IMG/VR virus record: IMGVR_UViG_3300035698_004514
Location: 1-27,653 of that record
Direction: 5' to 3' (one strand)
DNA: 27,653 nt
DNA from: a virus
The translations under genes were made by a program, and so were the position numbers. Each line of letters opens with the position of its first letter. Position 1 is the first letter of the stretch. Below are positions 5,032 to 19,150 of the stretch, piece by piece. The notes under the pieces are model-generated. The model did no database searches, had not been told where the DNA came from, and saw only the letters and a program-made list of their open reading frames with translations.

Positions 5032-5535
5032 TTATCTGAATGTCAGCTCCGTCTCGGCTTTGACTTCGTCGATTATTTTCAGCGCGCTCTCTCGAAGTGT
5101 GGTAGGACTGATGGAGGCCAGGTTGTATATTCTGCCGCGAACCGTATTCAATGCACAGAGAATATTGACTGTGTTAGATCCCGTCCCCGACTCGGCTTTG
5201 ACTTCGTCGATTATTTTCAGCGCGCTCTCTCGAAGTGTGGTAGGACTGATGAAGGCCAGGTTGTATATTCTGCCGCGAACCGTATTCAATGCACAGAGAA
5301 TATTGACTGTGTTAGATCCCGTCCCCGACTCCACCCCGACCTGCTCGATGAACTGCTCTCGGGACTGCCCTTTGAAGCGCGGGAATCCCTGCCGGTCCAT
5401 CGCGTCCGTTAATTTGTCGCACTCCGCTTCCGATTTCTCAAGCTGGAATTCGACCCGGCGGATTTCTTCGCAATAGTTCGCTCGCATATCCCGAATCATC
5501 TGCCCGACCTCTTCCTGAAATACGTTTTCCATCAT
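5032..5535 (-). CDS. Unknown helical protein with a tandem internal duplication (167 aa)
   Basis: The start is taken at the ATG at 5535, which follows an AGGAGG Shine-Dalgarno overlapping the stop of the RusA-like gene. The N-terminal half (about residues 1-65) is acidic and probably helical (QMIRDMRANYCEEIRRVEFQ). The rest consists of a 46-residue unit, ESGTGSNTVNILCALNTVRG to IIDEVKA, repeated twice with one amino acid difference (F to S), and a short tail. I do not recognise the family. The unit length and predicted mixed helix/strand suggest a small self-contained domain. As the last gene before the packaging promoter, it likely belongs to the replication/recombination transcript. Confidence 0.7.
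   Translation of the reverse strand: MMENVFQEEVGQMIRDMRANYCEEIRRVEFQLEKSEAECDKLTDAMDRQGFPRFKGQSREQFIEQVGVESGTGSNTVNILCALNTVRGRIYNLAFISPTTLRESALKIIDEVKAESGTGSNTVNILCALNTVRGRIYNLASISPTTLRESALKIIDEVKAETELTFR
5053..5328. repeat. 138-bp in-frame tandem duplication (two copies)
   Basis: Copies at 5053-5190 and 5191-5328 are identical except for one base (5114 G versus 5252 A). The period of 138 is exactly 46 codons, so the reading frame of the 167-residue gene is kept. Confidence 0.95.
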
Positions 5536-5546
5536 GATGCCTCCTC

Positions 5547-6107
5547 CTATTCCCACGGCCAGATCGTGACCACAACCCGATGTCGCGCCTTGTCTGGCTC
5601 GTGTATCTTGGTGTGTGAGTCATTGTAGACCCATTTATCCGGCTGGTATACTCCGGGCATGAGTTCATCGAACAGTGCGTCGATTATGAGCTTCGGGCAT
5701 GATTCAAGATCCGCCGCCTCCACCTCACATTTTGCCTTTTCGGTGATCGTATCCCATTTCCAGTAGACCAGCATTTTGTATTGATACTTCCGTTCTGGCA
5801 ACCGGCGACTCCCGACGTGCGACCGCACGAATTTCTTGTAATTGCGGCCCTTTGTCGACAGCCGTCTCCCCCCGCTTTTGAGGTTTTCGTAGGCTGTGTT
5901 CGAGCTTGGCGGCTTGCCGGGGATGGTGAACCTGAAGGGATCTCCTGACATCATCTGGTCCAATTTTGATTGATCGGCATGTACGATGTAGGCGAGGTCT
6001 AAAATATCTGTACAGCTCCGAATGTTACCATTGGGATACAGGACTTCCCATTCAAACTCGTTTCTCCGTGTGAATACTCCGTTATGCTGTTTGACCCATT
6101 CGCTCAT
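5547..6107 (-). CDS. rusA: RusA-like Holliday junction resolvase
   Basis: A 186-residue protein. From about residue 58 it shows the RusA pattern: an N-terminal FTIPGKPPSSNTAYENLKS (typical PPS-N motif), a central beta strand, then AADLESCPKLIIDALFDEL and a YNDS motif near residue 165 that would supply the acidic metal-binding residues, and a final beta strand RHRVVVTIW. RusA enzymes are small dimeric endonucleases that resolve Holliday junctions or trim branched DNA before packaging. The first 55 residues are extra compared with the usual 120-residue family length and look like a small separate domain. It follows the DnaB helicase, consistent with processing replication or recombination intermediates. 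Confidence 0.75.
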   Translation of the reverse strand: MSEWVKQHNGVFTRRNEFEWEVLYPNGNIRSCTDILDLAYIVHADQSKLDQMMSGDPFRFTIPGKPPSSNTAYENLKSGGRRLSTKGRNYKKFVRSHVGSRRLPERKYQYKMLVYWKWDTITEKAKCEVEAADLESCPKLIIDALFDELMPGVYQPDKWVYNDSHTKIHEPDKARHRVVVTIWPWE

Positions 6108-8310: not shown

Positions 8311-8332
8311 TTCATCTACCTTTCAGCCCACG

Positions 8333-8383
8333 AAAAAACCCTTCAAGCGGCACCACGCCAATGGCAGAGACTCGAAGGGTTTT
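8333..8383 (-). terminator. Long-loop intrinsic terminator in leader A
   Basis: Arms AACCCTTC and GAAGGGTT (8381-8374 and 8344-8337) with a 29-base loop, followed by a T6 run, located just before the Shine-Dalgarno of the gene at 8310. Its position between promoter and start codon marks it as an attenuator rather than an end-of-operon terminator. Confidence 0.65.
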
Positions 8384-8450
8384 GATCGCGGGTATTATCC
8401 AGCGATAGGTTTTAATTGTCTTGGCGTTTACCATTATCTCTGCCTTTTCC
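8333..8450 (-). ncRNA. Leader RNA A: structured 5' leader with terminator and loop-upstream pairing
   Basis: Transcribed from the promoter at 8485-8458 towards the 74-residue gene. Elements in RNA order: GGCAGAGA (8444-8437), ACGCCAA (8427-8421), a small hairpin ATCGC/GCGAT (8406-8385), terminator 5' arm ending ACCCTTC (8383-8374), UCUCUGCC (8370-8363), UUGGCGU (8361-8355), terminator 3' arm GAAGGGUU and U run (8344-8333). GGCAGAGA pairs with UCUCUGCC, and ACGCCAA pairs with UUGGCGU. Both 3' partners lie in the terminator loop, giving a pseudoknot-like alternative. The same order occurs in leaders B and C. I do not recognise a known riboswitch class. Confidence 0.7.
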
Positions 8451-8457
8451 GTCCCTC

Positions 8458-8485
8458 ATCATACCGCATCGATTTCACCTGTCAA
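8458..8485 (-). promoter_or_regulatory. Sigma70-type promoter for leader A and the replication genes
   Basis: TTGACA (8485-8480), 16-base spacer, TATGAT (8463-8458) on the minus strand. It begins right after the stop of the upstream small gene, in an AT-rich context. The transcript would start near 8451 and enter leader A. Confidence 0.8.
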
Positions 8486-8500
8486 CACTTATTTTATTTT

Positions 8501-8698
8501 TTATCCGCGGTTCATTGCGTATTCAATCGCGTGCTCGCTTATCGGCGTCTTGAGCACAGTTACCTCTACATCTGTCATGCCACCATCCTTGTCGGTGAAT
8601 TGCGCCCTATAGGCCACGGCCAGAGCCGCGATACCGGGCGACATAACGATTTCCCGGTGCGATATATAGTCGTGGAATGTCAGGCAGTTACCGGTCAA
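8501..8698 (-). CDS. Small protein, TTG start likely (65 aa)
   Basis: A 65-residue protein. The Shine-Dalgarno GGGAGGAG overlaps the end of the RecT-like gene and sits seven bases before a TTG codon at 8698, so TTG is the probable start. The only ATG further upstream lies before that site inside the RecT-like gene. The sequence has a short hydrophobic helix (SPGIAALAVAYRAQF) and a beta-like segment MTDVEVTVLKTPIS. No family recognised. It is the last gene before the promoter at 8485, so it ends the recombination block. Confidence 0.6.
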   Translation of the reverse strand: MTGNCLTFHDYISHREIVMSPGIAALAVAYRAQFTDKDGGMTDVEVTVLKTPISEHAIEYAMNRG

Positions 8699-8702
8699 CG
8701 GA

Positions 8703-9896
8703 TTACTCCTCCCGCTTCGCATCGTAATAGTTCTTGATTTCCAACTCGACCTTGCGGAGATCAGCCGGGTGGAGGATTTTCACGAGCTGGACGATAGACT
8801 CAATTTCGGGATGCTCGTCGAGGACAAAGCCAGTCGTGTCGATCACCGATTGGATAGCGAAAGATTCGACGGGGTAGACTTCCGAAAGATTGTCGAGAAT
8901 CCACGTGCGCAGCTTCTCCACCGCATCGACCGAGGTCTCGAGTTTGCCTATCAAGTCCTGCGCGTTTTCGAGTGTGAGCTTTGCCTCATCATCGACGATA
9001 TATGTCGCCTTGAGGCGTTCCTTCCATTTCACCTCGTCGGGCTGGAGTTTGTTTTTCAGCGACTTGATTTCCCCGAGTTTCGCGGGAGTGATTTCCGGCG
9101 CGAGTTTGATGGTCGGCTTTGGCTTGGCCTTGGGTTTCGCCTTTGCCTTTGGCGGCGTTTCTTTTTTCTTAGCTGGCGCAGGCGGCAGATTCAATCCAGA
9201 AGAGTTCTCCGCTTCTATTGCTTCCGCTTGCATGGCATCAAGTTCGTCAATCTCCTCTGGCGTAAAGGCAGACCCCAATCCCCCAAGAAGATCGCCTCCG
9301 ATAATTTTTGCGGCGCGTGTGTATGCTCTTGAGTACAGCATGATTGCCGGGTCTGATTTCCACGGAGTGTTATCTTTCACAAGCCACTTTGCCTTCGCCA
9401 TCTCGATAGTGAATATCCCCGCAACCGACTTCCAGCCTTGACGGTGCAAGATCAAATGACAGATTTTCTCATCCCATTCAACGATCTCGGTTTTTACGCC
9501 GCCGCCTTGCAATTTGTACTCGTAGGCATGGACCCCGACCTGTATATTCCCGGCCCGGACATACCCTTTTTTATCCTTGTATGCGGGCATGATGTGCATC
9601 TCTCTCATGTGGATCGTCGGCAATCCCAACTCGTAACCGAGGGCGATCTTGAGGAAGGTTTGCGCCTTCGTTCTTTCGACTGGATCAACGGGTTTTTCCG
9701 AGTAAACAATCCCGCTCTTGATGAAGTTATCGGCGGCAAGCTCCATCCTCTGCCATGCGGTCTGGTCCACGTCCACCATGCTTTTGCTTGTGATATGTTC
9801 GACCTGGCTTTCGAGGAGCAACTCTTGTAGGTTCTCCGCCCTCTTCTGTGCCTGCTCTAACGTTTCCGTTGGGCTGTTATTCAGTTGCGTTTCCAT
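8703..9896 (-). CDS. recT: RecT-like single-strand annealing protein with extra C-terminal domain
   Basis: A 397-residue protein. Residues about 45-230 resemble the RecT / Bet group: a long DNA-binding core with LKIALGYELGLPTIHMREMH and a closing helix MLYSRAYTRAAKIIGGDLLG, the position where RecT proteins have their R-x-A-x-x-R-A-like helix. A low-complexity linker rich in lysine, proline and alanine follows (PPKAKAKPKAKPKPT, about 255-275). A helical C-terminal domain of about 120 residues is not typical of short RecT proteins. RecT anneals complementary single strands made by its partner exonuclease. The RecE-like nuclease lies two genes upstream, supporting the pairing. The start has a GGAG site. 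Confidence 0.72.
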   Translation of the reverse strand: METQLNNSPTETLEQAQKRAENLQELLLESQVEHITSKSMVDVDQTAWQRMELAADNFIKSGIVYSEKPVDPVERTKAQTFLKIALGYELGLPTIHMREMHIMPAYKDKKGYVRAGNIQVGVHAYEYKLQGGGVKTEIVEWDEKICHLILHRQGWKSVAGIFTIEMAKAKWLVKDNTPWKSDPAIMLYSRAYTRAAKIIGGDLLGGLGSAFTPEEIDELDAMQAEAIEAENSSGLNLPPAPAKKKETPPKAKAKPKAKPKPTIKLAPEITPAKLGEIKSLKNKLQPDEVKWKERLKATYIVDDEAKLTLENAQDLIGKLETSVDAVEKLRTWILDNLSEVYPVESFAIQSVIDTTGFVLDEHPEIESIVQLVKILHPADLRKVELEIKNYYDAKREE

Positions 9897-9933
9897 GTTG
9901 ATTCTCCTTATTATTTGTTGCGTTTAAGTGATT

Positions 9934-10416
9934 TTACCCTTCCGTTTTAGAGACGATGCTTCTCGCCAATTCCATTCTCCCATTATGTCTTTGTCTCGCA
10001 GCCTCCCGAGCCGCGAGCTTTTCTTTTTCCGCGGCCTTCTTCGCGGCCGTTGCCTCTCGTTCTAACTCGTTTATTATTCGTGGAATATCCTCCTGCCACG
10101 GACCGTCAGCTATCCAGTCGCCGTCGGCATAAACGCGGATGTACCCCTCGGGGACTTCCGGTCCGCTCCAGTCGCCGTCGGCATAAACGCGGATGTACCC
10201 CTCGGGGACTTCCGGTCCGCTGTGGGCAGGCGCATGATCTGGAATTACATAAACAGAGCAGTATTCATTCCTGTTCCAACTGTTCACAAGAAGGTATTTC
10301 CCGGAGCGAATCGTCAGGAAATGGTTTCTGAAACCGTCGCGCCATCGGCATTTGCTTTTTAGATAGTAGGATGCTTGAGCTGTTATCTCGCAAAACCTAC
10401 TCCTGGACAACTCCAT
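9934..10416 (-). CDS. Unknown protein with tandem 18-residue duplication (160 aa)
   Basis: Lies between the RecE-like and RecT-like genes. The 160-residue protein has an aromatic N-terminal domain (TAQASYYLKSKCRWRDGF, VNSWNRNEYCSVYVI). Then comes the 18-residue unit SGPEVPEGYIRVYADGDW repeated exactly twice, and a C-terminal charged helix (ELEREATAAKKAAEKEKLAA) that probably forms a coiled coil. I do not recognise the family. Its position suggests an accessory to the RecE/RecT pair, but nothing in the sequence proves it. Confidence 0.7.
   Translation of the reverse strand: MELSRSRFCEITAQASYYLKSKCRWRDGFRNHFLTIRSGKYLLVNSWNRNEYCSVYVIPDHAPAHSGPEVPEGYIRVYADGDWSGPEVPEGYIRVYADGDWIADGPWQEDIPRIINELEREATAAKKAAEKEKLAAREAARQRHNGRMELARSIVSKTEG
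10114..10221. repeat. 54-bp exact in-frame tandem duplication
   Basis: Copies at 10114-10167 and 10168-10221 are identical over all 54 bases, encoding two identical 18-residue units. A perfect match implies a recent event or active maintenance. Confidence 0.95.
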
Positions 10417-10417
10417 A

Positions 10418-11263
10418 TTAATCTCCTTTCATTTCAGGTTTAGTGTCAAAGTCCGGCCCCTTGTAACTTGGTTTCTTGCCGAGATAGCGTTTCTTCTCAT
10501 ATCCGGTCGGCCATGTATCTATCCGGATACATTCTGCGAGTCTCTCCATCGCCTCCTCGTTTTCGTATCGCTTCTCTTCAAGATCGACGATCCCGATTTC
10601 CCACACGCCTACGCGGTATGGCGGCTTGACTTCCACCGCGATGAGGAGCACGGTCTCGATCTCAAGCCCAGGGAGGCATACCCCGATCACCGCCTTGTGA
10701 AATGCGAGTTGCGATTTATAATCGTAGGAGTATAGCGCGTCGTACTCGAATTTGTCAAGGTCCGCGCATTTTTTCAGGTCGCAGAGGAACGGTCCGAGCA
10801 GGATGTCTGGCCTCGCCTGGCACTCGATCCCGCAATACTCCCCGCGCGCGGTCGCCTCGGTGACGATAGATTCATGCGCGAATACCTCGCCGGCCAAGCC
10901 GTGGGCACGCAGGCTGGCCTCCATTCCGCGGATCGCCACACCCTCTTTCGAGTTCATGATGAGCAGCCCCGCGTGCTCCTTTTTCCAAGCCAGTCCGGCT
11001 TTTTCCGATAGCTTCATGCCCTCGGGAGCGATTGCATATTTCGATTTGAACTCGCCCTCGCCGTCGAGCATCAGGCAATGGATCGCGGTTCCGAGTTCCA
11101 TCGGGCGAGTGGTAGTGCGCTCGGCCTTCCCGGTCTTGATGTCGTGATATGCTGACGGGTTGTGGCGGAAGGTCTTGAGGTGCGAGGACGTGAGTACGCA
11201 CTTGCGCTTCTCGTTGTAGGTGTCGAGATGTTCGGTGATTAGTCCAATGTCTTCGGGTTGCAT
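10418..11263 (-). CDS. recE: RecE-like exonuclease (PD-(D/E)XK, exodeoxyribonuclease VIII type)
   Basis: A 281-residue protein with the order of motifs seen in the nuclease domain of exodeoxyribonuclease VIII: RPMELGTAIHCLMLD near residue 53, CQARPDILLGPFLCDLKK at about 149-166 with the catalytic D followed by D-L-K, then a YDYKSQLAFHKAV helix with the Q-x-x-x-H/Y pattern. Such enzymes chew one strand of duplex ends to expose single strands for RecT annealing. The length fits the stand-alone phage version lacking the long E. coli N terminus. It sits between the SbcC-like ATPase cluster and the RecT-like gene. Confidence 0.8.
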   Translation of the reverse strand: MQPEDIGLITEHLDTYNEKRKCVLTSSHLKTFRHNPSAYHDIKTGKAERTTTRPMELGTAIHCLMLDGEGEFKSKYAIAPEGMKLSEKAGLAWKKEHAGLLIMNSKEGVAIRGMEASLRAHGLAGEVFAHESIVTEATARGEYCGIECQARPDILLGPFLCDLKKCADLDKFEYDALYSYDYKSQLAFHKAVIGVCLPGLEIETVLLIAVEVKPPYRVGVWEIGIVDLEEKRYENEEAMERLAECIRIDTWPTGYEKKRYLGKKPSYKGPDFDTKPEMKGD

Positions 11264-11291
11264 GATTTAGCTCCTTTCGATTTGTTGAACG

Positions 11292-11729
11292 TCAATATTC
11301 CACCCCTCTTTTTTTATCGAATGTGATATCGCAATTCATAGAGAACCTGCATTTAAGCGACTTCTCGATGGCGTCGGCGTAAGCAGTTGCGATGCTTCGT
11401 TGTCTGGATGGCTTTTTTAGTTCCTTTAGAACAGCAGCTTTCACCTTCTCCGCGTTCTGATCGAGCCATTCCTTTAACGCGCTTGTTGCAGCCTCGCGGA
11501 TAGACTTTCCGGCCATGATTTCGAGAAAGTCAAACTGGTTGTCGTAACTGCTCGGAGTTTTCAAGCCGTCTTTGTTGACTTTCACGGCCAGTGCCATAGA
11601 TACGGCCTTGCCGATTAGCTCGTCGGCATTCCCAAGTTGCGACACAATCGCAGCTTGAATTCTTCTGTCCAGCGCCTCTCGAACTAACTCCTTCGATACT
11701 TCCATTGATACCATTGCGTTGCCGGACAT
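11292..11729 (-). CDS. Unknown helical protein in the recombination block (145 aa)
   Basis: A 145-residue mostly helical protein with a clear AAAGGAG site that overlaps the stop of the ATPase gene. It has repeated helical segments (VSKELVREALDRRIQAAIVS, EAATSALKEWLDQNAEKVKA) and a C-terminal basic stretch with two cysteines (CRFSMNCDITF). No known family recognised. Its place between the SbcC-like ATPase and the RecE-like nuclease suggests it serves the same DNA-end-processing pathway. Confidence 0.7.
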   Translation of the reverse strand: MSGNAMVSMEVSKELVREALDRRIQAAIVSQLGNADELIGKAVSMALAVKVNKDGLKTPSSYDNQFDFLEIMAGKSIREAATSALKEWLDQNAEKVKAAVLKELKKPSRQRSIATAYADAIEKSLKCRFSMNCDITFDKKRGVEY

Positions 11730-11741
11730 GTCGTACTCCTT

Positions 11742-13130
11742 TCAGAAAAGAAAATCGTCGTCAACTTTGAGTTTTTCGAATGGACATTCCTTGCAACCGC
11801 CTTCTTTCTCTGCAAGGCAATCACCCTCTCGATTCACGATACAGTTCCCGGTGTGTGACCGGTGTGTGATTGGTGGCAAGGCGGTGTCTGGTTTGGCCTC
11901 GCGAATCTCGCCCTCCTCGATAATCACCGAGCATTCATCGCCGTCACCGACGCGCTCGATCCAGATCTGTGCGCCGGCTTCCGCCGTCATCTGATGAATC
12001 ATTTTCAGGGAATCGTCGTCAAGCAGCGAGCCGTCGCGGATGAGCACGACTCGAAGCTCGGGATTGGTCGCAAGAGCCATCGCCACCGATACGCGGAGAC
12101 GTTCAGCGCCGGACGCCTGATCGAGAGGAAGGTTGTTGAACGTCACGCCTCCGTCGGAGAAACCGAGGCCCTCGACGGGGAATTTCGCGGAGGCTATCAT
12201 GTCGGATTTCTTCTTGTCGATCTCTGTGAGCTTGGATGTCATTAAGCGGTAATCGTGTTTTAACTTCTGGACTGCCTCCATGTTATCGCTGTAACGATCC
12301 CACGCGCGGACGGCCGCGTTCTCATTATCCGCGTTTTCGATCTGCTGTTTGGTCACGCCCTCGTTTTGATCTACGAGGGCATTAACGATCTCGTCGAGGT
12401 CTTGCACCCTGTCTTGTGCCTCCTCGCTACCCTGATTGGCCTCTTTGAGCTTCTTTTTCAGTAGATCGATTTGGTCCAAAATGTCTCCGACCGACTTTTC
12501 AAATGATGCGAAATCCTCGATAGCGTGAGTTAGATCAGCGCGTTTGAGCGCGTTGCCAGTATTAATCGCCTGTCTCCGCTCAAGTTCTTCCATCAATATC
12601 GCCACGCTGACTTTGCCTTGTGGTCTCGGGAAATCCGGCTTCACCGGCTCCAAGATCTCCCGGCCTTTCAGCCTCCGATCCTCGTAAATCGACTCGTAAT
12701 CCTTGTCGAGTTCTGTCGTATCGACGCCGGTGATCTTCCGCAATAATTCGGCCTGCTTCCGCGGTTCCGCGATAGAGAATGCGAGGGGGTCGGCAGAATG
12801 TTTGTTGAAGATTCTGTCGAGGAGTTTCTGTGGCGAGCTGGTCGCGTTTCCGTCAGCGTCGGAAATCCGGAGATAGCTGCCCTTCTCGGTGAACGTCCGC
12901 TCGACTTTGTACTCTCCGAGGTCGGCGGTGATCGTCGCCTTCGCTTCTCCTTTGCGAATCGGCTGGTCGGGGATGAGCGATTTACCGCCGAGCAGATACG
13001 CGATTGAGTCGATCACGGAAGTTTTTCCCGCGCCGTTCCGGCCTCCGATCACGACCATTGATCCGTCCGGCGTGATGTCGATTGCCACAAGTTTTTTGAC
13101 GTTCTCCGCCTGTAGTCGAATGATCTTCAC
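11742..13130 (-). CDS. SbcC/Rad50-like AAA ATPase with C-terminal cysteine cluster
   Basis: A 462-residue protein starting at GTG (13130) behind an AAAAGGAG site. Walker A is GGRNGAGKTS at residues 29-38. Residues about 150-300 are coiled coil. An ABC-type signature QASGAERLRVSVAMALA and a Walker B region LRVVLIRDGSLLDDDS follow, as in Rad50/SbcC-type ATPases shortened to one hinge. The C terminus adds four cysteines (spacing 7, 7, 2) ending CKECPF, which could bind zinc or an iron-sulfur cluster. In phages such ATPases accompany recombination nucleases and may act in end processing. No SbcD-like nuclease is visible in the window. Expression follows leader RNA B. Confidence 0.85.
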   Translation of the reverse strand: MKIIRLQAENVKKLVAIDITPDGSMVVIGGRNGAGKTSVIDSIAYLLGGKSLIPDQPIRKGEAKATITADLGEYKVERTFTEKGSYLRISDADGNATSSPQKLLDRIFNKHSADPLAFSIAEPRKQAELLRKITGVDTTELDKDYESIYEDRRLKGREILEPVKPDFPRPQGKVSVAILMEELERRQAINTGNALKRADLTHAIEDFASFEKSVGDILDQIDLLKKKLKEANQGSEEAQDRVQDLDEIVNALVDQNEGVTKQQIENADNENAAVRAWDRYSDNMEAVQKLKHDYRLMTSKLTEIDKKKSDMIASAKFPVEGLGFSDGGVTFNNLPLDQASGAERLRVSVAMALATNPELRVVLIRDGSLLDDDSLKMIHQMTAEAGAQIWIERVGDGDECSVIIEEGEIREAKPDTALPPITHRSHTGNCIVNREGDCLAEKEGGCKECPFEKLKVDDDFLF

Positions 13131-13157
13131 GATTAAACTCCTTTTCTTTATACCAGC

Positions 13158-13208
13158 AAAAACACCCCTGGAAATTGACCACCGCGAAGAGGCACAACCA
13201 GAGGTGTT
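13158..13208 (-). terminator. Long-loop intrinsic terminator in leader B
   Basis: Eleven-base arms AACACCTCTGG and CCAGGGGTGTT (one G-U pair) with a 26-base loop and a T5 run, placed 28 bases before the GTG start of the ATPase gene. Confidence 0.65.
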
Positions 13209-13274
13209 ATTGCCGGAGAATATCCAGCGGGACTTGTTTTGTTATTCGCGGTAGCCATTTTACGTTGCCTTTCG
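13158..13274 (-). ncRNA. Leader RNA B, same architecture as leaders A and C
   Basis: Between the promoter at 13309-13281 and the ATPase gene. RNA order: AGGCAAC (13270-13264), ACCGCGAA (13252-13245), hairpin GCUGG/CCGGC (13228-13212), terminator 5' arm AACACCUCUGG (13208-13198), GUUGUGCCUC (13198-13189), UUCGCGGU (13188-13181), terminator 3' arm CCAGGGGUGUU with U run (13171-13158). ACCGCGAA pairs perfectly with UUCGCGGU in the terminator loop, the counterpart of ACGCCAA/UUGGCGU in leader A. The AGGCA/UGCCU pairing is shorter than in A. The CGCUGGAUA segment is shared with A. Confidence 0.7.
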
Positions 13275-13280
13275 GGCCTC

Positions 13281-13309
13281 GTAATATCAAGATTGGGATT
13301 CTGTGTCAA
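13281..13309 (-). promoter_or_regulatory. Promoter for leader B and the ATPase/RecE/RecT genes
   Basis: TTGACA (13309-13304), 17-base spacer and a weaker TATTAC (13286-13281) on the minus strand. It overlaps the short gap after the zinc-protein gene and would start transcription near 13274. Confidence 0.6.
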
Positions 13310-13323
13310 TGGAATTCTTGAAA

Positions 13324-13581
13324 TTATAATTCGATCTCGTGCATAGAATACACTGCGTCGATCTCCTCCTGTTTACGCTTCCATACGCGGAATGCCATGT
13401 CTCTCTCGTTTTTCAGCCTCATGATTTCAGAGCGGAGACGTTCGAGTTTTGTATTATGATGTTCGCATGTGTCATCCGGCTCGACAACGACGAAATTAAG
13501 GCCATGATGGCAGAACCTTCTCGGGTCTTTCGGCCCATAATTCTCGCACGTCGCGCAGCGTTTCTTCGGTTGCTCGCTCAT
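13324..13581 (-). CDS. Small zinc-ribbon-like protein with C-terminal coiled coil (85 aa)
   Basis: An 85-residue protein from the ATG at 13581, which follows a GAAGGG site; a longer GTG form is less likely. The N-terminal half has KKRCATCENYG, RFCHHG and DTCEHH, four cysteines spaced as in small phage zinc-binding proteins. The C-terminal half is a charged helix (LERLRSEIMRLKNERDMAF) likely to form a coiled coil. Function unknown; zinc-binding plus coiled coil suggests a small DNA- or protein-binding accessory. It is followed by the promoter of leader B. Confidence 0.7.
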   Translation of the reverse strand: MSEQPKKRCATCENYGPKDPRRFCHHGLNFVVVEPDDTCEHHNTKLERLRSEIMRLKNERDMAFRVWKRKQEEIDAVYSMHEIEL

Positions 13582-13582
13582 G

Positions 13583-13666
13583 TTATTTCCCTTCACTAAA
13601 AAATAGACTCTTGATTTCGTCGGCGGTCATTTCTGGCTCGCCGTAACAGCAAATGTCAATACCCAT
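13583..13666 (-). CDS. Possible 27-aa ORF, coupled to its neighbours
   Basis: A 27-residue ORF (MGIDICCYGEPEMTADEIKS...) whose ATG lies inside the preceding 22-residue ORF and whose stop is two bases before the zinc-protein start. It has no strong Shine-Dalgarno of its own. The gap-free chaining is the main support. Confidence 0.4.
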   Translation of the reverse strand: MGIDICCYGEPEMTADEIKSLFFSEGK

Positions 13667-13724
13667 CCGTTTCGTTTTCAACGAAACCAGCGTTGTGCAT
13701 GAAAAGATACGGGTCGAATTCCAT
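13656..13724 (-). CDS. Possible 22-aa ORF with good ribosome site
   Basis: ATG at 13724 behind GAAAGGAAACT encodes 22 residues (MEFDPYLFMHNAGFVENETD..). The Shine-Dalgarno is good, and translation would end inside the next small ORF. It may be a leader peptide or a true small protein. Confidence 0.4.
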   Translation of the reverse strand: MEFDPYLFMHNAGFVENETDGY

Positions 13725-13740
13725 AGTTTCCTTTCTAATT

Positions 13741-13781
13741 GGGTCGTCGGCATCAGACAATAATCGACGACCCTGTGTCAA
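13741..13781 (-). promoter_or_regulatory. 9-bp perfect inverted repeat with a possible weak promoter
   Basis: GGGTCGTCG (13773-13765) and CGACGACCC (13749-13741) on the minus strand form a perfect 9-bp inverted repeat with a 15-base loop. It sits between the 62-residue gene and the 22-residue ORF. TTGACA (13781-13776) with TCTGAT (13757-13752) at 18 bases could be a weak promoter overlapped by the repeat, making it either an operator or an RNA hairpin. There is no T run, so it is not an ordinary terminator. Confidence 0.5.
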
Positions 13782-13790
13782 AAATACCCT

Positions 13791-13979
13791 TTAACGTTCC
13801 ATCCTTACCACTCTCCTTCCTTCTCCGATCCAGTAGGCAGTATCTTTCACGATATGGGCTGCCAGAGCATGCTGCCCTACAGGCCATAACTCCTCGATGT
13901 AGCGATCGAGGCCTTTATCTTTGATTGCAGCGCGAATCGCCTTGATCTTTTCGGGGCGGAATTTTTTGGGTCGAGCCAT
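13791..13979 (-). CDS. Small basic protein (62 aa), unknown function
   Basis: A 62-residue protein starting MARPKKFRPEKIKAIRAAIK. It begins one base after the stop of the lipoprotein gene, with GAGAGGCGG as ribosome site. The N terminus is strongly basic and the rest mixed helical (LDRYIEELWPVGQHALAAHI). It could bind nucleic acid, but no domain is recognisable. Confidence 0.6.
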   Translation of the reverse strand: MARPKKFRPEKIKAIRAAIKDKGLDRYIEELWPVGQHALAAHIVKDTAYWIGEGRRVVRMER

Positions 13980-13980
13980 G

Positions 13981-14667
13981 TTACCGCCTCTCTTTCACGA
14001 CATTATTTATGTGCGGATTGGCGATTGTCTTAAACGCCGCCTTGACCGCCTGCCGGGTTTCCTCGGGGAGCAACTCGACGACATTCACGACGTCCCTTGA
14101 TATTTCATTGCGTGCTGATTTCAGCTTTTTCCATGCGAGACCCAATGTCCCGAGCACGCCCGCGGCTCCGGTCGCCACCGCTGGAATCCACGGGATGCCC
14201 GCGTCTTTAGCGGTATCCCCGATTGTTTTGATCGTCCCTTTAGCCTCTTTAATTCCCTTCTCAAATGCGTCCTGTTGAGCGTCCCTGATCGCCTGCGCGT
14301 TTTTCATTTCGAGTTCGCTCGTCTGCGCCAAGTGTTTGATTTTCATAATCTCAATTTGCATTTCGAGCTTTGTCTTCGCCGCGCTGTCTGGCAGTTTCGC
14401 CGCCGTGGTTTTGAGGATAGCGATTTGCCCCGGAAGATTCCATTCGATTTTCGGCGGGACGGGATTTGGTATTCCGACGCGGTAGAGGCTCGCTCGAATG
14501 GATGAATCGAGTTGTTTCACGCGCGGATCGTCCGGCGATTCGGACTTCAATGAATCGACCGCCTCCTTGCCCCTCCACGTATTTTCCTTCTCCTCCTGCG
14601 TGTAGCATCCGGCGAGAGACATAATGGCTATGAGCGTTAAAAGAATCGCTCCTGTGATGTTTCTCAT
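13981..14667 (-). CDS. Predicted lipoprotein with C-terminal membrane-like segment (228 aa)
   Basis: The N terminus is a lipoprotein signal: MRN, a hydrophobic stretch ILLTLIAIMSLAGC, and a lipobox SLAGC with the modifiable cysteine at residue 21. The mature part has a charged helical region (about 95-135), then a glycine/alanine-rich hydrophobic segment IPWIPAVATGAAGVLGTLGL at about 160-180, and a basic helical tail. An AAAGGGG site supports the start. Phage lipoproteins are known in superinfection exclusion and in spanin pairs. The early location here, next to the DUF1937-receiver gene, fits a host-envelope modification role better than lysis, but this is inference. Confidence 0.75.
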   Translation of the reverse strand: MRNITGAILLTLIAIMSLAGCYTQEEKENTWRGKEAVDSLKSESPDDPRVKQLDSSIRASLYRVGIPNPVPPKIEWNLPGQIAILKTTAAKLPDSAAKTKLEMQIEIMKIKHLAQTSELEMKNAQAIRDAQQDAFEKGIKEAKGTIKTIGDTAKDAGIPWIPAVATGAAGVLGTLGLAWKKLKSARNEISRDVVNVVELLPEETRQAVKAAFKTIANPHINNVVKERR

Positions 14668-14732
14668 TTGTAACCCCTTTCAATGTTTGGCTTTGTGCTG
14701 ACAGGACACGCGTCCTATCCTAATTTGGTTCT

Positions 14733-14754
14733 TTTTAGCAGCGTTTTAGCAGCG
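14733..14754. repeat. 11-bp tandem repeat at the stop of the DUF1937-receiver gene
   Basis: TTTTAGCAGCG is repeated back to back at 14733-14743 and 14744-14754. It spans the stop codon and lies just beside the 25-bp direct repeat. Confidence 0.85.
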
Positions 14755-15468
14755 TCCGGCACAGACCACGAGCGAGAAATCATCAACGCAGACTTTCGCA
14801 CAGGCGAATGTCGCGAGGCCGGATTGGGTCGTCGCGCGAACAATGGTCGTGTCACTGGATACGATCCAGCGGTTTTTTATCCCGCGAGCTTTTGCCTCGA
14901 GGAGAACCCGGCTGCCGCATTCTCCGCGAGGGAGACCTCCCGGCGACTCGGGGATATTTCCATCACAGACCACGAGCGAGAAATCATCGGAAATGAGGAG
15001 ATTAATTGCATCATCGCGATTCGATGCAAGGCGGAATTTGTCAGGATCGAGACCGGCTTCTTGGATCTGCACGCGCCACATATTGAGAATATCCGGGTCG
15101 TCATCGACGAGGAGAATTTTCCCTGATTTTTTCGCACGGGAGGTATACTCAACCGGGATATTGTGGTGGGCGGCAAAGGCGATTTCCGCTTCAATTCCGA
15201 ATGATTTCAACCAACCATCGAGCATCAGCACCAAGACCTTGTCGCAGGCGAGGATCATTCTGAAGTCAACCTTTTTCCAGAACTCCCAATCTGTCGGGAG
15301 ATCGTGTGCGGATGCGATAGCGTGCCCGTGGACGATAGGGGAGAAAACTATTTCCCCGGCTTTCAACATCTTCGCGGTCTGCTTGCACGCGGCCTTGTAC
15401 CGGGCCAGGCGCACCTCGGGGTCAGGCGAGCTGTAAGGCGATGCCAGATAAATGAGTTCGGCGGTCAT
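14746..15468 (-). CDS. DUF1937 (deoxyribosyltransferase-like) fused to a response-regulator receiver domain
   Basis: A 240-residue two-domain protein. Residues 1-108 fit DUF1937, a family of the nucleoside 2-deoxyribosyltransferase superfamily (IYLASPYSSPDPEVRLARY, GEIVFSPIVHGHA, a W-x-x-W-x-x-x-D segment, LMLDGWLKSFGIEAEI). Residues 116-240 fit a receiver domain: KILLVDDDPDI with acidic residues 122-124, phosphoacceptor D169 in LVVCDGNIP, S204/S205 in WIVSSD and K225 in ACAKVC, so the active site looks intact. The last 13 residues repeat DDFSLVVC and probably replace the final receiver helix. An AGGAG site supports the ATG. It is the first gene after leader RNA C. Plausible roles are nucleotide salvage or signalling gated by phosphorylation. 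No kinase is visible. Confidence 0.82.
   Translation of the reverse strand: MTAELIYLASPYSSPDPEVRLARYKAACKQTAKMLKAGEIVFSPIVHGHAIASAHDLPTDWEFWKKVDFRMILACDKVLVLMLDGWLKSFGIEAEIAFAAHHNIPVEYTSRAKKSGKILLVDDDPDILNMWRVQIQEAGLDPDKFRLASNRDDAINLLISDDFSLVVCDGNIPESPGGLPRGECGSRVLLEAKARGIKNRWIVSSDTTIVRATTQSGLATFACAKVCVDDFSLVVCAGRC
14760..14988. repeat. 25-bp direct repeat, copies 204 bp apart within one gene
   Basis: Identical 25-base copies at 14760-14784 and 14964-14988. The offset of 204 bases keeps the frame, and both copies encode the same DDFSLVVC peptide, once at the phosphoacceptor strand and once at the C terminus. Flanks are not alike. Confidence 0.9.
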
Positions 15469-15485
15469 GAATATCTCCTGTCATT

Positions 15486-15555
15486 AAAAAACGACTCTCC
15501 CCTGGAGCGCAGGGACCTCGCCAAAGGTGGGAGCGCTCGTCGTCGGGGAGAGCCG
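15486..15555 (-). terminator. Long intrinsic terminator in leader C
   Basis: Eleven-base arms CGGCTCTCCCC / GGGGAGAGTCG plus an inner six-base stem GAGCGC/GCGCTC and a T6 run, ending 18 bases before the ATG of the DUF1937-receiver gene. Confidence 0.65.
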
Positions 15556-15614
15556 AAAATTGTCGGTAATTAGAATCATTTGGCGAAGTCCGTTTCAATT
15601 GGTTTTGTACCACC
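15486..15614 (-). ncRNA. Leader RNA C, same architecture as leaders A and B
   Basis: Between the promoter at 15649-15621 and the DUF1937-receiver gene. RNA order: GGUGG (15614-15610), CUUCGCCAAA (15588-15579), hairpin CCGA/UCGG (15566-15553), terminator 5' arm CGGCUCUCCCC (15555-15545), inner arm GAGCGC (15538-15533), CCACC (15530-15526), UUUGGCGAGG (15525-15516), GCGCUC (15510-15505), terminator 3' arm GGGGAGAGUCG and U6 (15502-15486). CUUCGCCAAA pairs over ten bases with UUUGGCGAGG in the terminator loop, matching the equivalent pairs in A and B. The small hairpin overlaps the terminator arm, so the two exclude each other. Confidence 0.7.
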
Positions 15615-15620
15615 GCACGG

Positions 15621-15649
15621 ATTGTACAGGATCGCGTCGGAAGTTGCAA
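15621..15649 (-). promoter_or_regulatory. Promoter for leader C
   Basis: TTGCAA (15649-15644), 17-base spacer, TACAAT (15626-15621) on the minus strand, located just after the ribbon-helix-helix gene. The -10 element is good and the -35 imperfect. Predicted start is near 15614. Confidence 0.6.
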
Positions 15650-18051: not shown

Positions 18052-18075
18052 TTTGTTCTCCTTGTTAAATGTTGG

Positions 18076-18180
18076 TTGCCGTTCCTTGCCCTGCCGCGCC
18101 GGACCTTGCCCCGCCCCGACTTGACGTGTCGGGCCTTGTCTTACCGTGCCGTGCCTTGCCTGTGTTGTCATGCCATGCCC
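18076..18180. repeat. Short degenerate pentanucleotide array (about 21 units)
   Basis: Read on the minus strand the sequence runs in five-base steps close to GGCAN (GGCAA, GGCAC, GGTAA, GACAA, GGCGC, GGCAG) with phase kept throughout. It is far more GC-rich than its surroundings. It lies immediately upstream of the ribosome site of the 152-residue gene and ends in the same junction (GCAAC-C/T-AACATTT) as the long array. Confidence 0.88.
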
Positions 18181-18201
18181 GTACGGATCGAGCATGGCAT
18201 G
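18169..18201. repeat. Perfect 10-bp inverted repeat beside the short array
   Basis: CATGCCATGC (18169-18178) and GCATGGCATG (18192-18201) flank a 13-base loop, just downstream of the stop at 18212. There is no T run on the transcribed strand, so it is a hairpin or operator rather than a standard terminator. Confidence 0.75.
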
Positions 18202-18211
18202 ATTGGAACTA

Positions 18212-18862
18212 TTATTTACCGCATACTTTGAACATTCCCCAACCCATTCCGCAGGATTTCTTGCTGTCTGGTCGCCCTTCGCCGATACCGACCTGTAGCC
18301 CGACCCGCACCATCAGAGAGGAGACGTCCTGCACCGAGAATTGATCCAGATCGAATCTAATCTTAACCTTGGCCTCCCAACCCGGACCCCACATAGGCCG
18401 CGGGCGAATGTCACAGACGCCGGTTTCGAGCCTGACATGATGTTCGGAATATATTGGCTTGCCCTTTGTGATTTTGACGAGGGGAGTAAAGTCGTTCCTG
18501 TCAAATCCATCTGGCTCGACGAAAATCGTGAGTTTGGCTCTCGTCATCGCGAATCCGCAAATACGACAGGCGCTGATCGCCGCGTTACGAAACGCCGGAG
18601 CCGGGATTCCGTTCCAGCCTTCTTCGCTGATATGTTTTCCCTGTTCCATGAGCGCTTTGAAGTCCTTCGGTTCTCTTTTCCTTCCCTTTTTTGCCTGCGA
18701 TCCTTTTTCCTGCGTCTCCTTGATCTGGCCCCGCGCCTTTGCCGAGAAGGCGTTCTGGACGTACGGAGTGGTTCCCCGGATTGTAAATTCGACCGTCTTG
18801 AAATTCGGCGGTAAAATCTTCACTTCTGTTACCTGTTTTTTGTCTGCTTTTGCCTTTGCCAT
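18212..18862 (-). CDS. Unknown phage protein with glycine-rich C terminus (216 aa)
   Basis: A 216-residue protein with an AAGGAG site directly after the long pentanucleotide array. It has a basic N terminus, a hydrophobic core with WNGIPAPAFRNAAISACRIC, a beta-rich second half (ETGVCDIRPRPMWGPGWEA) and a glycine-rich end LQVGIGEGRPDSKKSCGMGW. I recognise this as a type found in other phages without assigned function. The glycine-rich loop near the C terminus recalls RRM-like RAMP proteins of CRISPR systems, but no CRISPR genes or arrays are present, and I give that idea little weight. Confidence 0.7.
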   Translation of the reverse strand: MAKAKADKKQVTEVKILPPNFKTVEFTIRGTTPYVQNAFSAKARGQIKETQEKGSQAKKGRKREPKDFKALMEQGKHISEEGWNGIPAPAFRNAAISACRICGFAMTRAKLTIFVEPDGFDRNDFTPLVKITKGKPIYSEHHVRLETGVCDIRPRPMWGPGWEAKVKIRFDLDQFSVQDVSSLMVRVGLQVGIGEGRPDSKKSCGMGWGMFKVCGK

Positions 18863-18887
18863 GATACGCTCCTTAAAGAAATGTTAG

Positions 18888-19143
18888 TTGCCTTGCCTTG
18901 TCTTGCCTTGCCGTGCCTAACCGTTCCACGCCCGGCCTCGCCACGCCTGCGTTGCCTCGCCTCGTCTTGCTTAGCCTGCCAAGCCTATACTCGCCTCGCC
19001 ATACCCCGCCTGGCCTGGCCTTGCCTTTCCTGCGTTGTCTTGCCGTGACGTGCCGAGCCATGCGTAGCCTCGCCACGCCGTGCCTTGCCTGCGTTGCCAC
19101 GACTTGCCTGGCCTTGCCACGCCCCGCGATGCCTGCCGTGCCG
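18888..19143. repeat. Long degenerate pentanucleotide array (about 50 units)
   Basis: About 256 bases of five-base steps near GGCAN on the minus strand (GGCAA, GGCAC, GGCGA, GGCGT, GGCCA), interrupted at a few points by four-base steps, including three CGCA units. It fills the spacer between the 87-residue and 216-residue genes. The gene-proximal edge matches the short array over aaatgttRgttgcc (18879-18892 versus 18067-18080), so the two arrays are related. Confidence 0.9.
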
Positions 19144-19146
19144 CAT
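18985..19146 (-). CDS. Possible 53-aa Arg/Gly-rich ORF inside the long array
   Basis: An ATG at 19146 sits eight bases after an AAAGGAG site that overlaps the stop of the 87-residue gene, the same arrangement as real starts in this phage. The frame runs 53 codons into the array (MRHGRHRGAWQGQASRGNAG...) before TAG. Either the array is partly translated, or it has replaced a gene whose start remains. Confidence 0.3.
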   Translation of the reverse strand: MRHGRHRGAWQGQASRGNAGKARRGEATHGSARHGKTTQERQGQARRGMARRV

Positions 19147-19150
19147 TACT

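What the first reader, a model, noticed from the sequence alone, without database searches (positions are those of the whole stretch)
8333..15614. Three related leader RNAs with covarying loop-upstream pairing and promoter-proximal terminators
Three separate leaders (8450-8333, 13274-13158, 15614-15486) each lie between a promoter and a gene. They share one order of parts: a 5' strand, a segment S2, a small hairpin, a terminator 5' arm, a 3' strand, the S2 partner, then the terminator 3' arm and U run. The S2 pairs are ACGCCAA/UUGGCGU, ACCGCGAA/UUCGCGGU and CUUCGCCAAA/UUUGGCGAGG: different sequences that keep pairing, which is covariation. In all three the partner lies in the terminator loop, so upstream pairing and termination could compete. 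The genes controlled start the replication block, the recombination block and the DUF1937-receiver gene. It may be a phage attenuator, an antitermination element responding to a phage or host factor, or a new riboswitch-like class.
Basis: partly seen in the sequence, partly recalled or inferred. Interest (0 to 1): 0.88.

Follow-up and report, generated by a model that had tools for sequence, protein, structure and literature searches.

The report
Phage leader RNAs with self-pairing terminators
Three gene blocks of this phage each start with a short RNA that can fold either into a stop signal for transcription or into a competing helix that prevents it, and unrelated phages, including cultured Flavobacterium phages, carry leaders built on the same plan, so this looks like a recurrent and apparently undescribed kind of phage RNA switch.

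Summary
Between a sigma-70-like promoter and a gene there are three leaders, each with an intrinsic terminator (arms of 10-11 bp) whose loop pairs with an upstream segment. The pairing is longer than reported in two of them (13 bp in leaders 2 and 3; shuffle p about 0.001 and at most 0.0003). In leader 1 the stronger upstream helix is "S1" (9 bp), not S2. The "S1" helices of leaders 2 and 3 (5 bp) are not above chance. In nested folding of growing transcripts the upstream helix wins until almost the whole 3' terminator arm is out, so it behaves as an antiterminator. Leaders 1 and 2 are paralogues (z = 6.4). No Rfam family matches. Three leaders are too few for a covariation test, and the only close relative is 99.9% identical. 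However, the same plan recurs in other phages. In 16 Bacteroidota-phage leaders before a replication gene, a 5' hairpin loop and the terminator loop are complementary, with strong compensatory change (score 0.52 against 0.21 shuffled). Copies sit in isolates (Flavobacterium phages snork6-1, tooticki6-1, 11b). A covariance model of that family does not match the window, so the likeness is architectural, not shown homology. Best reading: a cis transcription attenuator. Input and direction are unproven; no ligand evidence.

The parts
8458..8485 (-). Leader 1 promoter, TTGACA-16-TATGAT
   Evidence: consensus scan, 11 of 12 matches
8333..8451 (-). Leader 1 (119 nt to the end of the U run), upstream of the 8086-8310 gene and the replication block
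   Evidence: sequence; fold -34.7 kcal/mol, z -2.35
8436..8444 (-). Leader 1 S1 5' arm GGCAGAGAT (overlaps the possible ribosome-binding region)
   Evidence: 9-bp helix with GTCTCTGCC; MFE antiterminator of growing leader 1
8363..8371 (-). Leader 1 S1 3' arm GTCTCTGCC, in the terminator loop
8421..8427 (-). Leader 1 S2 5' arm ACGCCAA
8355..8361 (-). Leader 1 S2 3' arm TTGGCGT, in the terminator loop
8385..8406 (-). Leader 1 linker hairpin ATCGCTGGATAATACCCGCGAT
   Evidence: predicted fold; CGCTGGATA shared with leader 2
8374..8383 (-). Leader 1 terminator 5' arm AAAACCCTTC
8333..8344 (-). Leader 1 terminator 3' arm GAAGGGTTTT and U run
8312..8434 (-). Leader 1 short open frame, 40 codons, through the terminator; its stop lies one base before the ATG of the next gene
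   Evidence: sequence; coding not shown
13281..13309 (-). Leader 2 promoter, TTGACA-17-TATTAC
   Evidence: sequence; not listed by the scan because the last base is not T
13157..13277 (-). Leader 2 (121 nt), upstream of the AAA/SbcC-like ATPase gene and the recombination block
   Evidence: sequence; fold -35.8 kcal/mol, z -1.55, full-length MFE still the S2 fold
13245..13257 (-). Leader 2 S2 5' arm TGGCTACCGCGAA
   Evidence: 13-bp helix, p 0.001-0.002
13176..13188 (-). Leader 2 S2 3' arm TTCGCGGTGGTCA, in the terminator loop
   Evidence: switch behaviour
13212..13228 (-). Leader 2 linker hairpin GCTGGATATTCTCCGGC
   Evidence: predicted fold
13198..13208 (-). Leader 2 terminator 5' arm AACACCTCTGG
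13157..13171 (-). Leader 2 terminator 3' arm CCAGGGGTGTT and U run
13148..13258 (-). Leader 2 short open frame, 36 codons, through the terminator
   Evidence: sequence; coding not shown
15621..15649 (-). Leader 3 promoter, TTGCAA-17-TACAAT
   Evidence: consensus scan, 9 of 12 matches
15486..15615 (-). Leader 3 (130 nt), upstream of the DUF1937/receiver gene
   Evidence: sequence; fold -43.9 kcal/mol, z -2.68
15579..15591 (-). Leader 3 S2 5' arm GGACTTCGCCAAA
   Evidence: 13-bp helix, p <= 0.00025
15513..15525 (-). Leader 3 S2 3' arm TTTGGCGAGGTCC, in the terminator loop
   Evidence: switch behaviour
15545..15555 (-). Leader 3 terminator 5' arm CGGCTCTCCCC
15486..15502 (-). Leader 3 terminator 3' arm GGGGAGAGTCG and U run
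15484..15579 (-). Leader 3 short open frame, 31 codons, through the terminator
   Evidence: sequence; coding not shown

Best explanation
Each leader is a cis-acting transcription attenuator. RNA polymerase starts at the promoter and first makes an upstream arm (S2 5' in leaders 2 and 3, mainly S1 5' in leader 1). It then makes a linker, the 5' arm of an intrinsic terminator, and a segment complementary to the upstream arm. As soon as that segment emerges it pairs back to the upstream arm and encloses the 5' terminator arm, which delays or prevents the terminator, so transcription reads into the replication, recombination or DUF1937 block. Anything that occupies or melts the upstream arm (a ribosome on the short leader frame, a protein, another RNA) frees the loop, lets the terminator close and stops transcription. 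Shown by computation: the parts, the non-random pairing, the switch order in nested folding, and selection on the same loop-to-upstream pairing in an independent phage family. Inferred: that termination really occurs, that the upstream helix is anti- rather than pro-terminator, and what the input is.
For: Terminators are strong for their composition (z -3.6 to -4.4) and lie between a promoter and a gene in all three leaders. Upstream helices exceed shuffles. In growing transcripts the upstream helix is the MFE from the moment its 3' arm is out until 16-25 nt later, with pair probabilities near 1 in leaders 2 and 3. Upstream arms of leaders 2 and 3 and the S1 arm of leader 1 have no other match of 9 nt or more in the window, which argues for cis action. 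In about 80 unrelated phage contigs, terminator loops pair with upstream sequence about three times more often than loop-swapped or shuffled controls (35 against 12-14 of 115 at score 17 or more; 10 against about 2 at 21 or more). In 16 aligned leaders of Bacteroidota phages the 5' hairpin, terminator and loop-loop helix covary: 96.7% of cells paired, score 0.524 against 0.212 +/- 0.015 shuffled and 0.09-0.13 slid; 5 of 7 loop-loop pairs change on both sides. L020, outside that family, has a 12-bp version (p below 1/1500).
Against: No transcript data. Nested folding ignores pseudoknots: in the Bacteroidota leaders the two 7-nt loops can pair while both stems stay formed, so there the contact could help rather than hinder the terminator. 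The window family itself has no diverged relatives, so its own S2 covariation rests on three sequences. No input signal identified.
Confidence: 0.56

Rival explanations
1. Ribosome-coupled attenuation, as in pyrBI: the short frame that runs through each terminator is translated, and a ribosome close behind RNA polymerase prevents the terminator; S1/S2 pairing with the start region controls ribosome loading.
For: All three leaders have an ATG in or beside the S2 5' arm and a frame of 31-40 codons through the terminator; leader 1's stop is one base from the next start codon. A translating ribosome represses a terminator near the end of a reading frame (PMC4824070).
Against: Open frames are not rare here (44% of ATGs have 32 or more open codons). 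The segment CGCTGGATA shared by leaders 1 and 2 is read in different frames, so conservation is at the RNA level. The ribosome-binding site of leader 3 is poor. Several Bacteroidota leaders have no such frame. Terminators in the first 100 bp of a reading frame can still work (PMC4824070).
Confidence: 0.2
2. Trans action: the short terminated RNA (or its loops) acts on the nascent leader or on a superinfecting phage, like P4 immunity or c4-type RNAs, giving feedback or immunity.
For: Loop and upstream arm are self-complementary and differ between copies in one phage, as expected of self-specific RNAs (sequence).
Against: No second copy of 9 nt or more of the arms tested in the window; in the Bacteroidota family both loops lie in one molecule, so cis pairing should win; the model finds no copy in 299 Flavobacteriaceae genomes, so no sign of use by prophages.
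Confidence: 0.1
3. Ordinary terminators that insulate operons, with incidental pairing of loops to upstream sequence.
For: Intergenic terminators are common; leader 1's best helix alone is only p 0.025-0.04.
Against: They lie downstream of the promoter they would have to spare; leader 2 and 3 helices are p 0.002 or less; strong loop-loop covariation in the independent family.
Confidence: 0.1
4. A metabolite riboswitch, the linker region being the aptamer.
For: Small linker hairpin with a shared CGCTGGATA stretch in leaders 1 and 2.
Against: No conserved core between leader 3 and leaders 1 and 2; no Rfam match at E 1 apart from a sub-threshold microRNA hit; linkers differ between families.
Confidence: 0.04

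Closest known systems
Terminator/antiterminator attenuators of bacterial operons (trp, pyrBI class)
   Same: Promoter-proximal intrinsic terminator competing with an upstream helix in a leader of about 120 nt
   Different: The antiterminator pairs with the terminator LOOP rather than with a terminator arm; no demonstrated peptide or factor; several copies per phage
Kissing-loop RNA pairs such as ColE1 RNAI/RNAII and the loop-targeted attenuators of plasmid copy control
   Same: Two short complementary loops, 7 nt in most Bacteroidota-phage leaders here
   Different: Both loops lie in one sense transcript and one of them is the apical loop of the terminator; no antisense RNA found
Riboswitches whose structure overlaps the terminator (crcB and pfl motifs, PMC2864571)
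   Same: Folding of an upstream structure is expected to control terminator formation
   Different: No conserved ligand-binding core, no Rfam match
P4 and c4-type RNA-based phage immunity
   Same: Promoter-proximal termination in phage leaders with complementary segments
   Different: No separate regulator RNA; all complementarity found is within the leader
Bacteroidota-phage leader family found here (model R1)
   Same: Promoter, upstream arm, linker, terminator whose loop pairs with the upstream arm, then a replication gene
   Different: There the upstream arm is the apical loop of a stable hairpin; R1 does not match the window

Membership tests
Transcription attenuator (terminator/antiterminator leader) | Intrinsic terminator between promoter and first gene | tested here: met
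Transcription attenuator (terminator/antiterminator leader) | Alternative upstream helix that is mutually exclusive with the terminator in the growing transcript | tested here: met
   nested folding only; pseudoknot coexistence not excluded
Transcription attenuator (terminator/antiterminator leader) | Regulated termination in vivo or in vitro | not testable with these tools
   needs Term-seq or in vitro transcription
Bacteroidota-phage leader family (R1) | Match to the covariance model | tested here: not met
   R1 finds L067, L135, L139 (L167, L168 at E 0.11) but not the window
Bacteroidota-phage leader family (R1) | Terminator loop complementary to a segment near the 5' end of the transcript | tested here: met
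   for the window, for the family
Bacteroidota-phage leader family (R1) | Upstream arm is the apical loop of a stable 5' hairpin | tested here: inconclusive
   by eye: leader 3 can form AATTGAA/TTCTAATT around its arm; leaders 1 and 2 show no convincing stem
Any Rfam 15 family | Covariance-model match above the gathering score | tested here: not met
pyrBI-type leader-peptide attenuation | Translated leader frame running through the terminator | tested here: inconclusive
   frames present in all three but weakly significant; homologous segment read in different frames
P4/c4-type RNA immunity | Separate RNA segment complementary to the leader arms | tested here: not met
   no other match of 9 nt or more to the arms of 9 nt or longer in the window; the window may be an incomplete genome
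Riboswitch | Conserved ligand-binding core across homologues | tested here: not met
   leader 3 does not align with 1 and 2

The most novel reading that the evidence does not exclude
A widespread class of phage leader RNAs in which the terminator loop is locked to a 5' arm or hairpin loop by a sequence-variable, structure-conserved kissing or pseudoknot contact, read by shape (by RNA polymerase itself, or by a host or phage protein that recognises loop-loop complexes), gating replication genes in phages of different host groups.
Probability: 0.35. Interest if true: 0.8.

Novelty: new variant of a known kind. Interest (0 to 1): 0.62.

Why it matters
If right, many phages gate their replication and recombination blocks by a built-in RNA switch in the leader rather than by a protein antiterminator. 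Because the arms vary freely while the pairing is kept, sequence-based searches miss it; the architecture search used here finds it. Cultured Flavobacterium phages carry it, so the mechanism can be tested at once.

Tried and rejected
Viral scans with the window's RecT-like, exonuclease and terminase proteins returned only the 99.9% identical contig IMGVR_UViG_3300005915_000150; the ATPase scan also gave three distant relatives without a leader. Scans with the genes downstream of L020 and L078 found only themselves. Prophage loci with the DUF6291 gene showed no clear copy, and model R1 found none in 12 named genomes or 299 Flavobacteriaceae genomes, although it rings in the phage contigs used as positive control (two of those are training sequences). 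Literature searches for phage kissing-loop or pseudoknot terminators found no description; the library is incomplete. A riboswitch reading and a conserved leader peptide were considered and set aside. Methanosarcinales virus vir525, Vibrio phage 1.262.O, Porphyromonas phage005a and Cellulophaga phage phi38:1 gave no convincing copy.
Full report
WHAT WAS CHECKED. The window is a record of IMG/VR with all main genes of this region on the minus strand. The downstream genes are as described: leader 1 precedes a small gene, a replication-initiator-like gene and a DnaB helicase; leader 2 precedes an AAA/SbcC-like ATPase, an exonuclease (DUF3799) and a RecT-like protein; leader 3 precedes a DUF1937 protein with part of a receiver domain.

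ANATOMY. Each leader starts a few bases after a sigma-70-like promoter that lies directly after the preceding gene. The order is: upstream arm(s), linker (with a clear hairpin in leaders 1 and 2), terminator 5' arm, a long loop holding the partner segments, terminator 3' arm, U run. The terminator hairpins fold far better than shuffles (z -4.35, -4.02, -3.62). Helices between loop and upstream part: leader 1 has a 9-bp S1 (GGCAGAGAT/GTCTCTGCC) and a 7-bp S2; leader 2 a 13-bp S2; leader 3 a 13-bp S2. Against dinucleotide shuffles p is 0.025-0.04, 0.001-0.002 and at most 0.00025. The 5-bp S1 pairs of leaders 2 and 3 are not above chance and should not be counted.

ARE THE THREE RELATED? Leaders 1 and 2 are paralogues (global alignment z = 6.4); leader 3 is not significantly alignable (z = 2.4 and 1.7). 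The S2 cores can be lined up as xCGCyAA/UUy'GCGx' with both variable pairs changed on both sides, but three sequences cannot support a covariation claim alone.

SWITCH BEHAVIOUR. Folding of growing transcripts shows the upstream helix as the minimum-energy structure from emergence of its 3' arm until about 16 nt (leader 1, S1 helix), 25 nt (leader 2) and 19 nt (leader 3) later, when the terminator takes over; pair probabilities for S2 in leaders 2 and 3 are mostly above 0.9 when the arm is just exposed. For leader 2 the complete leader up to the U run still prefers the S2 fold. About 14 nt of RNA are hidden in the polymerase (general knowledge), so the upstream helix should be the favoured state at the decision point and read-through the default. 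This is inference from nested thermodynamics.

SHORT FRAMES. Each leader holds an open frame (40, 36, 31 codons) that starts at or beside the S2 5' arm and passes through the terminator. The evidence that they matter is weak: open frames of this length are common in the window (44% of ATGs), and the stretch CGCTGGATA shared by leaders 1 and 2 is read in different frames. Translation as the input is kept as a rival.

SEARCH FOR RELATIVES. No diverged relative of the window's early region was found; the only near one is 99.9% identical. A search by architecture (terminator whose loop pairs with upstream sequence) in about 80 phage contigs fetched through the DnaB helicase found the plan in unrelated phages, with about threefold excess over loop-swapped and shuffled controls (the terminator set includes false positives within genes, so the excess is probably a lower estimate). 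The convincing cases are mostly upstream of replication-initiator-like genes (DUF6291, Lin1244-type) or NUMOD4/HNH endonucleases. L020, with 55.5% GC, carries a 12-bp helix and a linker hairpin like the window.

THE INDEPENDENT FAMILY. Leaders before a DUF6291 gene start at a Bacteroidota-type promoter (TATATTTG or similar), form a 5' hairpin with a mostly 7-nt loop, then a terminator of up to 16-17 bp whose loop holds the complement: GTAAGAG/CTCTTAC, GTAGAAG/CTTCTAC, ATTGAGG/CCTCAAT, GTTGCAG/CTGCAAC, GTCGCAG/CTGCGAC, GTACGAG/CTCGTAC and others. On 16 aligned leaders the named structure pairs in 96.7% of cells (shuffled 81.4; slid 36-52), has 20 pairs with changes on both sides, and a covariation score of 0.524 against 0.212 +/- 0.015; the loop-loop helix alone has 5 of 7 pairs with changes on both sides. 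The structure was read off one member, so the slide control favours it somewhat, but the both-side changes do not come from that choice. Copies occur in isolates: Flavobacterium phages snork6-1 and tooticki6-1 (two each on the plus strand, with different loops) and 11b. Model R1 from this family recovers further members but not the window, and no copy was found in 299 Flavobacteriaceae genomes. So the element looks phage-specific, and the window shares its architecture, not demonstrated ancestry.

CONCLUSION. The best-supported mechanism is a cis attenuator with a loop-targeting antiterminator. Its direction and input are not shown. In the Bacteroidota family the loop-loop contact is sterically compatible with both stems, so there it could also speed terminator closure; the proposed double-mutant test decides.

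Noticed in passing
window 5049-5331 (gene 5032-5556, minus strand): The window carries an in-frame tandem duplication of about 138 nt (46 codons) where the near-identical contig IMGVR_UViG_3300005915_000150 appears to have one copy, judged from the overlapping BLAST segments.
   Followed up: partly
window 14746-15468, minus strand: DUF1937 (nucleoside deoxyribosyltransferase-like) fused to a half-length receiver domain, with a short repeat (DDFSLVVC) at the C-terminus that matches a DNA repeat near 14760 and 14965.
   Followed up: no
window 10113-10221: 54-nt direct tandem duplication inside the gene 9934-10416 (GPEVPEGYIRVYADGDW twice), also present in the relative.
   Followed up: no
L032, L034, L067: The Bacteroidota-phage leaders also sit directly before NUMOD4/HNH homing-endonuclease-like genes, as if the endonuclease had inserted between leader and replication gene.
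   Followed up: no
L167 minus strand near 8412 (snork6-1): A possible third leader of the same plan (AACGTTTG/CAAACGTT) overlapping a small annotated ORF (gp23) that may be spurious.
   Followed up: no
window 18070-19150: The predicted proteins of both strands look low-complexity and repetitive here (runs such as LPCLALPCLTVPRPA), suggesting a repeat-rich stretch; not analysed.
   Followed up: no
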